Source: Psilocybe azurescens (lineage: Eukaryota > Basidiomycota > Agaricomycetes > Agaricales > Agrocybaceae). From it: a stretch of DNA of 64,000 nucleotides. The notes beneath the pieces were generated by a model. That model was not told the DNA's origin. It saw only the letters and a list, made by a program, of their open reading frames with translations, and did no database searches. Location of the stretch: NCBI GenBank assembly GCA_023853785.1, contig JAJIRX010000714.1:62001-126000 (forward strand), written 5' to 3'. Both the position numbers and the translations under genes were made by a program. Shown one piece after another: positions 34,073 through 47,336 of this stretch; positions within the stretch are counted from its first letter, which is position 1; every line of letters begins with the position of its first letter.

Positions 34073-34652
34073 CTAGGCCTGATTTTCTGTCCGTCTCCAA
34101 TCAACATCTCCACGTGCAATGTTTTCCGACCGTCTCCAATCGACGTTGGCACGAGCATTATTCTCTGACCGTCTCCAATCGACATTTCCCCGAGCATCAT
34201 TCTCTGACCGTCTCCAATCAACGTTTCCGCGGGCATTGTTCTTTGACCGTCTCCAGTCGACGTTGCCTCGAGCATCGTTCTCAGAACGTCTCCAATCGAC
34301 ATTGCCCCGAGCATCATTCTCTGAACGTTTCCAGTCAACATTGCCCCGAGCGTCGTTCTCTGAACGCTTCCAGTCGACATTGGCACGAGAGTCGTTTTCC
34401 GACCGTTTCCAATCGACGTTGCCGCGAGACTCATTCTCTGAACGTCTCCAATCGACATCGCCGCGAGGGATCTCTGAGCGTTTCCAGTCGACATTTCCCC
34501 GAGCTAGATTGTCAGCTTCGGGAACCTAGAAAGGTAGAAATAACTTAGTTTGGAGATGGCTGGAGGGATACATAACTCACAGGGGCAGCTGCCACTGTCG
34601 AGGTCAAAAGGAATAACCATATTGCAGTAAGGTAACGTGAATTGAACAGCAT
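34073..34652 (-). CDS. Secreted repeat peptide precursor, probably kexin-processed (KEP type)
   Basis: Not matched to a named family. Exon 1 (34581-34652) encodes only a signal peptide, MLFNSRYLTAIWLFLLTSTV followed by AAAP; a 55-nt intron (34526-34580) separates it from exon 2 (34073-34525). The 174-residue product then consists of eleven tandem units: VPEADNLARGNVDWKR, SEIPRGDVDWRR, SENESRGNVDWKR, SENDSRANVDWKR, three further SENDARGNVDW units (one ending KR, two RR), SKNNARGNVDWRR, SENDARGNVDWRR, SENNARANVDWRR and SENIARGDVDWRR, then TENQA. Every unit ends VDW plus KR or RR, the dibasic site cut by Golgi kexin (Kex2). Cleavage and trimming of the basic residues would release up to eleven 10-14-residue peptides, four identical (SENDARGNVDW), each with a C-terminal Trp. 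The role could be signalling, surface or defence. No UstY-like or other modifying enzyme was recognised next to it. Confidence 0.85.
34091..34525 (-). repeat. Tandem 39-bp coding repeat array (11 units) of the peptide precursor
   Basis: Units of 39 bp (one of 36 bp, the first of 48 bp) encode the 13-residue repeats. Many differences between units are at third codon positions (GAT/GAC, AAT/AAC, GTC/GTT, CGT/CGG/CGC), while the codons for Asp-Trp and the dibasic pair keep their meaning in all eleven units. Confidence 0.9.
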
Positions 34653-36102
34653 CGCTGGAAGAGAGGGAGGGGTGGAGTTAGTGATGAGGAGGATACTACG
34701 GGTCATTGCTTTTTATGCGTGGTTAAAAACCAGATCAAATCCGTTGATCCCATGTGTTGGAACCTGTTGAGATTCGGTGGGGAGGAGTCGAGCCGTCTTT
34801 CCGCATCAGGTATTTTGGGTACCTTGCCATAAAATTCACATGCAGCATCTGTTTTTGTCCAATTCACAGCATGTGTCTCGCAGTGACAGGCGTCGGGATT
34901 AAACCTCCCGTTGCTGAATCGCAATAAGTGTCCCCGTGGCGCAGTGCGCATGGTTCCATCATAAGAGTAGGGTAATCGAGATTTTTCCAGTTACGTGCCA
35001 GATAAAAGCCTCATTCTTGCATGGCTACGCTAATGATATACGGCCATTGACTTGCATCCCAGACGGAACTGCGGAAACTGGAAACCTCGGAGCCTATGAA
35101 ACCTTTGATAGCGTCAACTTTCCCAGATCAGTGGTGTGCCTTGAATACCTACTTACCAACTCTCACAGTCCCCTTAAATCACGGTGCTTCCCTCTTGATC
35201 GTCCTATCCTACGGATGGATTTGGGCGGTGCCTTCTTCGTAATTTCGGCTCTTTGAACAACCTTCAGCAGAGTAATAGAGTGTAAAATTAACACCTTGTA
35301 CCTCGTCCCACTCCAAGGCTATCAACTGTCGTTAACAAATGTCCGTGGTCATCCAATGACGCCGTCACATTACACTATGGTATGGACTCCGCGAGGATAT
35401 GGACGTCAGTGTTCGTCTTAAACGTTCTAATAGAACCTGTCATTGTCCAAACTGTTACACACACTCTCAAAAACATGGGAACATACCAAAAACAAGATGT
35501 CTTCAAGACGACGGTCCTAGGATACGGATGCTTAATCTGGGGTGTTGTCGGTCGTGAAAGATAACTATCTGCTTCAGGAAGTTTTCACTCGGACGTCTTT
35601 CGGCACATTGTTTGGTTTGAAAATAGCTGGACCTGAAGCCAAGGGAGCGGTTAGCAATCAATGCATTGATAAGTATGAATAGCTTTCAACCAACCTTTTT
35701 TGTTTGCGTAGACCAATCTGTCCAATATTTCCCTGCAGTTTTCGCGACCTGTAGTACAGCCAAACCGAGTCAATGGAGGCAACTGGAGGGATGACAAATT
35801 GACATCCTTTGAGATGATTTGTCTTAACATGAAACGACGCCTGGAACCGGGACCTCTTCTCACACTAGAAGCAACCACCATTATAGACCAACGAAGACCT
35901 GATATCAACGCAATGGAGAACTCCAGCTTTGTTCCTCATGTATTTTTGTGTATGAAAGTGCTTCGGCAAGTTAGATTTGCAACTCCCTACCTTTAGAAGA
36001 TACAGAAAAGTGAAAAGATTCATCGTGTAATTAGCATAGAATGACGACCGGATCATGATGTCATGTTGGCTTTACATAGTGATACAGATAACACGAAAAA
36101 TA
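34653..36102. other. 1.45 kb intergenic, no gene recognised
   Basis: Holds the promoter of the repeat-peptide gene, with a TATA-like ATAAAAAG (minus strand, about 34709-34717) some 57-65 bp before its ATG, then AT-rich sequence and the 3' side of PRP17. A 60-residue open frame at 35382-35564 (plus) with two hydrophobic stretches is not supported by splice context or family features. Confidence 0.45.
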
Positions 36103-44549: not shown

Positions 44550-47336
44550 CTAGGACCAAGTGGCAGGACCGACGAAGCCTGACTCAGGCATCGCTTTGAA
44601 GGGTATACCATTAGCATCTGCTGTATTTTGCCACACACTATTGAGGCATATTGTCAGCCTTCTGGCAAAAAAAAAGTAAACAAAAGAAAACTCACGTATT
44701 ACCCCACCAATTGAGTTCAATACCGCCGGTTTTAGGTAGGCCAAATGCAAAGAACAAAACCATCATTGCAAATACGGCGCCAGCGTCGAGAGCAGCCGAA
44801 AGGATATAGTTGTATCGCATCCACCACCTGAAGCGCAAGCGACGGATGACATAGTTGAAGATGAAACCTGCAAGCACCCACGATGCGTAGTTGATTCCTG
44901 AAGCTGGTGGCATAGCAGCGAGACCGGCAAAGAAGACGGGAATATTGACGTATCGGTAGAAGGACAATGGGAAGCGGCGAGCGAGGAAGTAGAAGGGGAT
45001 GGGTGCGAGGATGCCAACTGGGAAGAACCACAAGAGGCCGGAGTAAGTCGATCCTGGACTGAACAGACGACGAGGGCCAACAGCACCCCAGATGACGGAG
45101 GCGTTGTAGAACGTTGTAGAACCAGGGCAGCGGAATCCTTGCTTTTGGTCTGGGGTGCAGATATCTTCGACATTATTCAACATCCAATCTTGAATCAGAG
45201 TGACCCAAATACAAGCGATGATGGAGGCGACAACCTGGATCAAGAACATGATGCGAGGAGGGATCTTCATGTAATGACCAAGCTTGAGATCTCCGGCGAA
45301 ATTCACGGCCTGATTGGAAGTGATGAAGGCAATGGTTTTGAAAATGATATTTGCGATGGGTCTTCCGGGAAGCATGTAACCAGCGATGAGTTCGTGCATA
45401 ACCTGTGTGGGCACTTGCTGATTGGTGATTGCCTGGAGCATGGCGAGAGGGATGGCAAGGATAGCAGAGATAAGGATTCCAATGACGGCAGCCCAGATTG
45501 GCAGTTGAGTCGGAACGATTTCGATTGCAGCGCAGAAGAAGGCAAAGGCGATAATGCCAACAAGACCATACCACCATGCAGGAACTTCGGGATAGGCCAA
45601 CATAAGACGCGAGTGGACGTCGCGCTCATCTTTCAGAGAGCTTCGGAATCGTCGCATAATATCCTTGCGGAACCACACTGCGAACGTGAATAAGTTTTGA
45701 GGTTTTGAATAGATCGATAGGAGACTTACGGAATGTGTGCACAAAGACTGCGGGGAATGCGGCGAAGGCGATACCATATGCCAAAGCAAGTGTGGTGGTC
45801 AAGAAGACTGGGGAATATGCTTGATATTTAGCCAGATCGAAGACACCATCCGTGACAATTTGAATGGCTTGATATGGTGATCCGGTGTTGTCGAAGGTTA
45901 CAGGAGCTGAAATTGGGAAGAATGCAGAGTTCCAGACATTGGTGACTGTTGTGCGTGATCAGGCAGGTTCATAGAAAGACGGACGCGGGACTTACAGTAC
46001 AAAATAGGGGCAATAAACCAAAACATGATAACGAAGGCGACACCGGTATTCATCTGAGACCACCACTGCAGTATTTTGTTTAGTTATGGCAAGAGTGAGC
46101 GAACAGAATAAAAACGCACGGGTGTAACAAGAGGACTGCCAATGAAAGCTATCATTGACCAGTCGAAACTAATCATGCTCATACCCAAGCCAGTGTTGGT
46201 TCCGAACAGTGCGTTGACAACAACGTTGTTGGGGACAATCCAGCAAACCCAGTTAAACATACTGAGTGCCGTGAAAAGGTATCCAGGAATCCAGTACCAA
46301 ACAAAGCTGCAAAGCATTGCGATGACGAAGAAGCGTTCGCGAGTAATGTGTCCGCGGTCGCGCTTTCCGTAGTTTTTGTGAAGGGTGTTGAACAAAGCGG
46401 AGTTGACCAAAGCACCGGGCCAGATCATGCTCGAAGGCCATACGACAAACTGGCGAAGAAGGCCGCCCAGAGAGAATCCAATAATTTGGGATCCAAGGGC
46501 AAGAAGGATTTGATAGCTCATTGGGGTTGTTTGACCGTAGAAGACCCGCTGGCTCAAGACGACTTCTGTTGAATAGGCGCCTCCCCATACAACGTTGGCC
46601 ATGACAGTGATACAAACGTGCTCCTTGATCGTGAATGGTCCTGGATTGAATGACCATTTGTAGCCAAAAGTATTGAACACTTTAGTCGGAAGGATAACGG
46701 CTAGACCACGGCCCATGGGAAGAGAAACGAGCTGAGCAACAATGCCTGTGATGTAGACAGATGGATCTAAAAGATTCTGTCAGTTTTACCGAGCATATCT
46801 CATCGAAAGCAAAACGTACATCTCATCGAAAAAATCTGATTGAAGCCGGAAGTAAAAGGGACAAGAGAATGCCCAAAAACCACATGCGGAATGTGTTGAC
46901 GGGCATAGTAACATCGTCGATGCTTGATACAGCAGCTCGAACTTCTGGGTATGGCGACTCACTGATGAAAAGTCAGGATAAGGAGAGACGTAAAGAGAGG
47001 AGAGCACTTACTCGTCGAATTCAATTGCGGTTGAGACTCTTGACTCTGCCCTCGAAGTAGAGTAGTGGGAATCGGCGTCCGAGAAGTCGATCTTCTTCGA
47101 CTCATGCTCGTAAGGAGGGGTCGGACCATGTTCGCTATCTGACACGAACGAGGGTGGATAGTTCTTTCGTAAATCAAAATTGGGATCGTTTAAATGATCC
47201 TGGATGAACTTGGCTTGAATCTCGTCGTCGATGATATCTTGTGGGACATCGGGGCGGGACGGATGCGCAAGCTAGAACTGACACGCTCAGCTGCAGTGGT
47301 ATAGTGTGTACCCTCCTCCAATTTATAGGCCTCCAT
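44550..47336 (-). CDS. OPT-family oligopeptide transporter, with two frame breaks
   Basis: A plasma-membrane proton-coupled transporter of small peptides (tetra- or pentapeptides, glutathione or related). ATG 47336 gives MEAYKLEEGTHYTTAAERVS; one base is missing at about 47272-47276 before LAHPSRPDVPQDIIDDEIQA. An acidic cytosolic tail follows with SESPYPEVRAAVSSIDD, then NTFRMWFLGILLSLLL, where one base is missing near 46846-46852 before GFNQIFSMRYPSVYITGIVA. Membrane segments follow in order, with family stretches AQLVSLPMGRGLAVILPT, NPGPFTIKEHVCITVMANVV, GFSLGGLLRQFVVWPSSMIW, MISFDWSMIAFIGSPLVTP, VFDLAKYQAYSPVFLTTTLA, YPEVPAWWYGLVGIIAFAFF, NFAGDLKLGHYMKIPPRIMF and ASWVLAGFIFNYVIRRLRFR. It ends at TAG 44550-44552. 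About 800 residues and some 14 spans are expected. Confidence 0.93.

What the first reader, a model, noticed from the sequence alone, without database searches (positions are those of the whole stretch)
34073..34652. Secreted precursor of eleven Trp-ended 13-residue peptides flanked by KR/RR sites
Seen: a signal-peptide exon, then eleven tandem units, all ending VDW plus Lys-Arg or Arg-Arg; four would give the identical peptide SENDARGNVDW. Known: kexin (Kex2) cuts after KR/RR in the late Golgi, and repeat precursors of this design (KEP class, including dikaritin and fungal pheromone-type precursors) release many copies of a short peptide. Inference: this gene makes a small secreted peptide family with a C-terminal Trp, possibly a signal, surface or defence peptide, or a ribosomal natural product. 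I recognise no modifying enzyme (no UstY-like, tyrosinase or methyltransferase gene) within the window next to it, so an unmodified peptide is more likely. I do not know this repeat from a named family.
Basis: partly seen in the sequence, partly recalled or inferred. Interest (0 to 1): 0.9.

Follow-up and report, generated by a model that had tools for sequence, protein, structure and literature searches.

The report
Kexin-cut precursor of tryptophan-ended fungal peptides
This fungal gene encodes a protein with a likely secretion signal and eleven near-identical blocks that a processing enzyme is predicted to cut into short peptides ending in tryptophan; peptides of the same design have been detected in shiitake and oyster mushrooms, so it is a new member of a known class whose job is still largely unknown.

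Summary
On the minus strand a 24-residue hydrophobic N-terminus (34652-34581), a 55-nt GT-AG intron and exon 34525-34073 give a 174-residue precursor with 11 of 11 units ending VDW-[KR]R; four would release SENDARGNVDW. The predicted cores are 11 residues in nine units (14 and 10 in the other two), not 13. Unit-to-unit changes are mostly silent (pS 0.68, pN 0.09), so the peptide is probably what is selected. The genome holds three kexin-like loci, a likely Kex1 and a DPPIV/STE13-type locus; none of 28 UstYa matches lies on this contig, while two other repeat precursors sit about 1.5 kb from one. A metagenome relative keeps the N-terminus and DW-ended units. Trp-ended KEX2-processed repeat proteins (KEPs) are already published, including an 11-residue SGTGEASAADW detected in shiitake (PMC9769878), but I could not show that the cores are homologous. 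Verdict: a new member of a known kind, most likely giving an unmodified linear peptide. Transcription, splicing, cleavage and function are untested.

The parts
34581..34652 (-). exon 1: start codon and predicted signal peptide MLFNSRYLTAIWLFLLTSTVAAAP
   Evidence: the first 28 residues of the spliced product share 20 of 28 with P0001. No signal-peptide predictor was available.
34526..34580 (-). 55-nt intron, GTGAGT...CTAG
   Evidence: P0001 reads straight through the same junction (AAAP-APEA against AAAP-VPEA)
34073..34525 (-). exon 2: eleven kexin-site repeats, short tail TENQA, stop
   Evidence: tandem array
34478..34525 (-). unit 1: VPEADNLARGNVDW-KR; the only unit starting with an X-P (STE13-like) dipeptide
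34442..34477 (-). unit 2: SEIPRGDVDW-RR
34403..34441 (-). unit 3: SENESRGNVDW-KR
34364..34402 (-). unit 4: SENDSRANVDW-KR
34325..34363 (-). unit 5: SENDARGNVDW-KR
34286..34324 (-). unit 6: SENDARGNVDW-RR
34247..34285 (-). unit 7: SENDARGNVDW-RR
34208..34246 (-). unit 8: SKNNARGNVDW-RR
34169..34207 (-). unit 9: SENDARGNVDW-RR
34130..34168 (-). unit 10: SENNARANVDW-RR
34091..34129 (-). unit 11: SENIARGDVDW-RR
34711..34716 (-). TATA-like ATAAAA 64 nt before the start codon (possible promoter element, pattern only)

Best explanation
This gene encodes a 174-residue repeat protein with a predicted signal peptide and eleven tandem units that all end Val-Asp-Trp before Lys-Arg or Arg-Arg, and kexin would likely cut it in the late Golgi so that, after a Kex1-type carboxypeptidase trims the basic pair, mostly 11-residue Trp-ended linear peptides would be released, four of the eleven being SENDARGNVDW. 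Shown by sequence: the exon reading frames and splice signals, the 11 units, mostly silent change between units, kexin-like, Kex1-like and DPPIV-type genes in the same genome, and no UstYa match on the contig. Inferred: secretion, splicing, cleavage, absence of cyclisation, and that ten of eleven peptides keep their N-terminal Ser because they lack the X-A/X-P dipeptides that STE13 removes; the first unit, preceded by AP-VP-EA, would be trimmed if signal peptidase cuts before AP. Most likely role (inferred, about 0.4): an extracellular message, to the fungus itself or to a partner organism, rather than a toxin or wall material, because the peptides are small, hydrophilic and mostly acidic, without Cys.
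For: Anatomy. Codon pattern; a second Trp-ended KEP of the same genome shows the same over the last five codons of 13 of its 14 units (pS 0.75, pN 0.08). Relative P0001 (JGI contig of 950 bases, E 7.3e-5; 43% over 112 aligned positions, single-comparison E 6e-19) has the same N-terminus and mostly DW-ended units and reads through the intron position. Kexins: three loci from four matches; the one exon compared has yeast kexin as best PDB match, E 7.8e-67. DPPIV/STE13-type: one locus. Kex1: a C471 fragment has KEX1(delta)p as best PDB match, E 5.2e-5, ahead of carboxypeptidase Y at 5.1e-4. No UstYa on C609: 0 of 28. Precedent: SGTGEASAADW and SGVAADW detected by mass spectrometry in mushrooms (PMC9769878 section 8). 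Another KEP here (C600) ends its last unit in Trp-stop, which suggests Trp as the mature C-terminus there.
Against: No transcript or peptide data. No signal-peptide predictor was run. Only one relative passed E of 1 among 7991 scored candidates, so wide conservation of this core is not shown. In-register identity of SENDARGNVDW to four shiitake-type cores is 3 of 11, no better than shuffles (P 0.26-0.31), and to P0009's core 2 of 11 (P 0.62). P0001's units are irregular: one ends HRRW and one has lost its dibasic site. The Arg present in all 11 units could be a monobasic cut site; PMC9769878 reports some products of apparent single-Arg cuts. Antisense frame 1 also shows pS above pN. Six KEP knockouts in Coprinopsis had no phenotype and the tested peptides no antibacterial effect.
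Confidence: 0.85

Rival explanations
1. (About function, compatible with the best explanation.) The peptides are a self-signal of the Cryptococcus Qsp1 kind: a secreted 11-residue peptide with C-terminal Trp that is taken back up by an oligopeptide transporter and acts inside the cell.
For: Qsp1 is an 11-mer ending in Trp, imported through Opt1 (PMC5959073, PMC7537855, PMC6571750, passages). Nine of 11 cores here are Trp-ended 11-mers. An OPT gene lies about 10 kb away in the window (matches within 44692-46779) and gives the best OPT match of the genome.
Against: Qsp1 matures outside the cell through Pqp1, not through kexin repeats; beyond length and last residue the sequences do not look alike (by eye). 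OPT matches lie on 18 contigs and none of those scored lies on the contigs of the other Trp-ended KEPs (C600, C852, C905); WD40, Myb, TPR and Prp19 genes lie between, so the closeness is probably chance.
Confidence: 0.1
2. (About function, compatible with the best explanation.) The peptides act on a partner organism, as a host- or symbiosis-directed secreted peptide like Laccaria MiSSP8.
For: PMC9769878 cites the MiSSP8 paper for KEP-derived mutualism modulators; MiSSP8 has a repetitive motif shared with saprotrophs and is up in ectomycorrhiza and fruiting bodies (PMC7105643, PMC8708209, PMC9610748, passages). That its motif is DWRR is recalled; the paper is not held.
Against: No expression data; the organism and its life style are not identified; the motif occurs in saprotrophs too.
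Confidence: 0.2
3. It is a dikaritin-type RiPP precursor whose cores are cyclised by UstY-like enzymes.
For: Same precursor layout; the genome has UstYa genes and two repeat precursors about 1.5 kb from one.
Against: 0 of 28 UstYa matches on C609; no Tyr or Cys in any core; Pfam scans of 30 window ORFs show no tailoring enzyme, though 12 of the 30 matched nothing and other ORFs were not scanned.
Confidence: 0.04
4. The peptides are structural surface material like Ustilago Rep1 peptides.
For: Rep1 is also a kexin-cut repeat protein whose peptides form amyloid-like fibrils (PMC9769878 introduction).
Against: Cores are short and hydrophilic (GRAVY -0.65 to -1.88, 11 of 11 negative).
Confidence: 0.05
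5. The reading frame is a non-expressed repeat or a decaying gene.
For: One protein search found only one relative; a sister KEP (C852/C905) has broken frames.
Against: Frame intact over 11 units with mostly silent changes, clean splice signals, intron position supported by P0001.
Confidence: 0.06

Closest known systems
Lentinula edodes KEP 2599 and its kin (SGTGEASAADW; here P0007, core SGTNEGSAADW)
   Same: Secreted-type N-terminus, 13-residue unit, 11-residue core starting Ser and ending Asp-Trp before KR, no STE13 dipeptides; peptide detected in fruiting bodies (P0007).
   Different: Core ends AADW, not VDW; 3 of 11 identities, no better than shuffles; weak whole-protein match, 28% over 85 positions. 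P0007 as annotated has three full cores, not eleven.
Pleurotus KEP 1091723/1439342 (SGVAADW; here P0010) and Coprinopsis KEP 490115 (QYKAPSW, QMRPPSW)
   Same: Trp-ended kexin-cut repeats; Pleurotus peptides detected in fruiting bodies, Coprinopsis 490115 peptides in Pichia medium.
   Different: They carry STE13 dipeptides; 10 of 11 window units do not.
Basidiomycete XSDW-repeat KEPs of Le Marquer et al. 2019; Laccaria MiSSP8
   Same: Repeats with a SDW motif (the C852 units of this genome, NSDW, are closer still); the MiSSP8 paper is cited for KEP-type mutualism modulators.
   Different: VDW here; no symbiosis data; MiSSP8 sequence not seen.
Cryptococcus neoformans Qsp1
   Same: Secreted 11-residue basidiomycete peptide ending in Trp.
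   Different: Different sequence, and maturation by Pqp1 outside the cell.
Ascomycete alpha-pheromone precursors
   Same: Kexin-cut repeat precursor.
   Different: No STE13 signature in 10 of 11 units; no STE2 receptor found (no positive control), STE3 family present.
Dikaritin precursors (ustiloxin type)
   Same: Layout.
   Different: No UstYa match on the contig, no Tyr in cores.

Membership tests
KEX2-processed repeat protein (KEP) | N-terminal signal peptide | tested here: inconclusive
   Hydrophobic stretch and AAAP boundary seen in the sequence and kept in P0001; no predictor available
KEX2-processed repeat protein (KEP) | at least three near-identical repeats separated by KR/RR/KK | tested here: met
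   11 of 11 units
KEX2-processed repeat protein (KEP) | kexin present in the organism | tested here: met
   three P_proprotein loci; the one exon compared matches yeast kexin best
KEX2-processed repeat protein (KEP) | actual cleavage to peptides | not testable with these tools
   needs mass spectrometry
Trp-ended basidiomycete KEP (as in PMC9769878) | every core ends in Trp before the dibasic site | tested here: met
   11 of 11
Trp-ended basidiomycete KEP (as in PMC9769878) | core homologous to a published Trp-ended core | tested here: inconclusive
   3 of 11 identities to shiitake-type cores, shuffle P 0.26-0.31; one unit of P0001 ends AADW
alpha-pheromone-like KEP | X-A/X-P dipeptides after each kexin site | tested here: not met
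   1 of 11 units
dikaritin RiPP precursor | UstYa gene close by | tested here: not met
   0 of 28 matches on C609
dikaritin RiPP precursor | Tyr in the core (recalled as typical) | tested here: not met
   no Tyr in 11 cores
Rep1-type surface peptide | hydrophobic, surface-active peptides (recalled) forming fibrils | tested here: not met
   GRAVY negative in 11 of 11; fibril formation itself not testable
Qsp1-type import signal | 11-mer with C-terminal Trp | tested here: met
   9 of 11 cores; Qsp1
Qsp1-type import signal | extracellular maturation and OPT import | not testable with these tools
   OPT gene about 10 kb away is only a lead

The most novel reading that the evidence does not exclude
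SENDARGNVDW and its sister peptides form a Qsp1-like language of mushroom-forming fungi: kexin-released Trp-ended 11-mers secreted in many copies, taken up again by oligopeptide transporters (perhaps the OPT gene in the same window), with the free C-terminal Trp as the shared recognition mark and the rest of the core changing fast between species.
Probability: 0.08. Interest if true: 0.75.

Novelty: new member of a known kind. Interest (0 to 1): 0.36.

Why it matters
KEPs are widespread in fungi (7878 in 1345 of 1461 strains; PMC7329392 abstract), yet PMC9769878 says that most have no known function, and Trp-ended ones have been detected as real peptides without a function. This gene adds a clean member with eleven units, four identical, no STE13 motif in ten of them and mostly silent change, in a genome that also holds a STE13-type Trp-ended KEP and UstYa-linked repeat precursors. 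That makes a side-by-side test of three processing styles possible in one organism, and gives an exact mass to look for. If Trp-ended 11-mers proved to be signals as Qsp1 is, a general peptide language of Basidiomycota would become testable.

Tried and rejected
Pfam and NCBIfam on the precursor: nothing above cut-off; the weak DUF809 match (E 0.073) was taken as chance. Bacterial promoter and terminator scan and tRNA scan: nothing, and not expected to help in a fungus. A second allele or copy of the locus: none found in the assembly; the three other DNA matches fall in the MCM part of the query. Other Trp-dibasic arrays: the genome-wide pattern gave 38 matches against 43 for the reversed control, so the raw count means nothing; 26 of 38 fall in arrays on C600 (11), C609 (9), C852 (3) and C905 (3); the frames of the other 12 were not read. 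A STE2-type receptor: none, but nothing rang in the controls either. Homology of cores to shiitake: not supported. OPT neighbour as evidence of function: rejected as probably chance (71 of 85 candidates scored). Kex1: 51 S10 exon matches; four loci were fetched for a closer look and only C471 was followed; a neighbouring C471 exon gave no S10 or PDB match. Literature: the motif letters gave no relevant paper (one irrelevant match); 'C-terminal tryptophan' with KEX2 and Basidiomycota gave none.

Full report
What is there. The minus strand of 34652-34073 reads as a two-exon gene. Exon 1 (34652-34581) encodes MLFNSRYLTAIWLFLLTSTVAAAP, a hydrophobic N-terminus ending in an AAAP boundary, a predicted signal peptide. 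A 55-nt intron (GTGAGT...TTTCTAG) follows, with a CTAAG branch-like motif. Exon 2 (34525-34073) encodes eleven units and the tail TENQA. All 11 end VDW followed by KR (4) or RR (7). Nine units are 13 residues long and would give 11-residue cores; the first core is 14 and the second 10 residues. SENDARGNVDW appears four times (units 5, 6, 7, 9).

More than chance. Outside the gene W[KR]R occurs 51 times in 127,996 codons of the six frames and DW[KR]R once; one other open frame of 163 codons holds three W[KR]R. Comparing the nine units of 13 codons, 12 of 13 third codon positions vary but only 4 first and 3 second positions; the column-shuffle P is 0.0002. Silent differences per silent site are 0.677 and amino-acid-changing ones 0.088. 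In four of the five other frames the relation is reversed; antisense frame 1 also gives more silent than changing differences (0.495, 0.120), so this test alone does not settle the strand. The signal-peptide exon, the splice signals and the relative do. Sequence homogenisation between tandem units can also shape these numbers.

Relatives. One search of 5.8 billion proteins returned one relative below E of 1 among 7991 scored candidates: P0001, from a 950-base JGI contig. Its N-terminus shares 20 of the first 28 residues, it reads through the position of the intron (AAAP-APEA against AAAP-VPEA), and its blocks end PDW (two), HRRW, AADW, EDW and ADW. It supports the splice junction and suggests that the cores change faster than the N-terminus. 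One of its blocks (EDW) has lost the dibasic site.

The same genome. The window lies in a 70.4-Mb assembly of 937 contigs, on C609. Its STE3-family receptors (43 exon matches over six contigs) fit a basidiomycete, which is an inference; the species is not identified. The locus is single-copy there. Processing genes: three kexin-type loci, one exon of which was compared and matches yeast kexin best in the PDB; one DPPIV/STE13-type locus; and, among 51 S10 exon matches, a C471 fragment whose best PDB match is KEX1, with carboxypeptidase Y not far behind. Two further Trp-ended KEP types exist: C600, with EAEA spacers and QRNPTW or GGRNPTW cores, whose last unit ends in Trp-stop, and C852 with a near-copy on C905, PPNSDW-type units with broken frames. 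The C600 units show the same silent-change pattern over their last five codons (pS 0.75, pN 0.08, 13 of 14 units).

Modification. The genome has 28 UstYa exon matches, 0 of them on C609, C600, C852 or C905. Two other repeat precursors, GTDAEQGTSFRR-type on C625 and C623, each sit about 1.5 kb from a UstYa match, so the enzyme family is present and simply not beside this gene. No core has Tyr or Cys. Pfam scans of 30 window ORFs (of 83 listed at 120 codons or more) found importin-type Arm repeats, RPN2, pyruvate kinase, MCM, WD40/Prp19, TPR, OPT, ALG10, Myb and kinesin domains but no tailoring enzyme; 12 of the 30 matched nothing. The plain linear peptide is therefore the more likely product.

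What is known. Le Marquer et al. (PMC6339444; results and two discussion sections read) named KEPs and noted a repeated XSDW motif in Basidiomycota. Umemura (PMC7329392; abstract and passages) counted 7878 KEPs. Vogt et al. (PMC9769878; introduction, parts of results, discussion and passages) detected Trp-ended KEP peptides: GPPAPSW (from a non-repetitive C-terminus) in Coprinopsis medium, SGTGEASAADW in shiitake, SGVAADW in Pleurotus, and QYKAPSW on expression in Pichia; they also note many basidiomycete KEPs with STE13 motifs and C-terminal tryptophan. I retrieved shiitake and Pleurotus members (P0007, P0010). The shiitake design (13-residue unit, Ser first, Asp-Trp last, no STE13 dipeptide) is the closest to this gene, but the cores are not more alike than shuffles. 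So it works like, and belongs in, the broad class of Trp-ended KEPs; descent from the shiitake gene is not shown.

Function. I found none reported for a close relative: six KEP knockouts in Coprinopsis were silent and the peptides tested did not inhibit bacteria. Two precedents point to signalling or partner effects: Qsp1 of Cryptococcus, an 11-mer ending in Trp that is imported by Opt1 (passages), and Laccaria MiSSP8, cited for KEP-type mutualism modulators (original not held). The small, hydrophilic, mostly acidic cores (net charge -2 to +1, negative in 10 of 11) argue against membrane-active or wall-coating roles. An OPT gene lies about 10 kb away, but OPT matches sit on 18 contigs and none of those scored on the contigs of the other Trp-ended KEPs, so I treat the closeness as chance until tested.

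Verdict. A real, apparently intact, well-built KEP gene, a new member of a known kind. It is likely to make linear Trp-ended 11-mers without STE13 trimming. Interest is moderate: the class is known and its function open.

Noticed in passing
G000 C625:41447-41866 (-) and C623:313940-314398 (+); loci L016, L017, L070, L071: Two repeat precursors with 13 and 14 dibasic sites and GTDAEQGTSFRR-type units, each about 1.5 kb from a UstYa match: dikaritin-like candidates, perhaps two alleles, with Phe but no Tyr in the repeated core; their signal peptides were not looked for.
   Followed up: partly
L003 1251-2019 (C600:168676-169444): A textbook alpha-pheromone-like precursor with EAEA spacers and QRNPTW/GGRNPTW cores, last unit ending Trp-stop; N-terminal Gln suggests pyroglutamate.
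   Followed up: partly
L004 1440-2025 (C852) and C905:42445-42827 (L069): A PPNSDW-type Trp-ended KEP in two near-identical copies, both with broken reading frames, near ORFs that look by eye like retroelement integrases.
   Followed up: partly
window 44692-46779 (-): OPT oligopeptide transporter gene about 10 kb from the KEP and the best OPT match of the genome; probably chance, but testable as an importer.
   Followed up: partly
G000 C777 and C800: Dense clusters of STE3-family receptor exons, on the face of it a pheromone-receptor mating locus present in two assembled versions.
   Followed up: no
P0002, P0004, P0005 (P0002 and P0005 from Zasmidium cellare): Precursors with many Leu-Trp-dibasic sites and acidic-Ala spacers; Zasmidium is an ascomycete (recalled), so Trp-ended KEPs do not look confined to Basidiomycota.
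   Followed up: no
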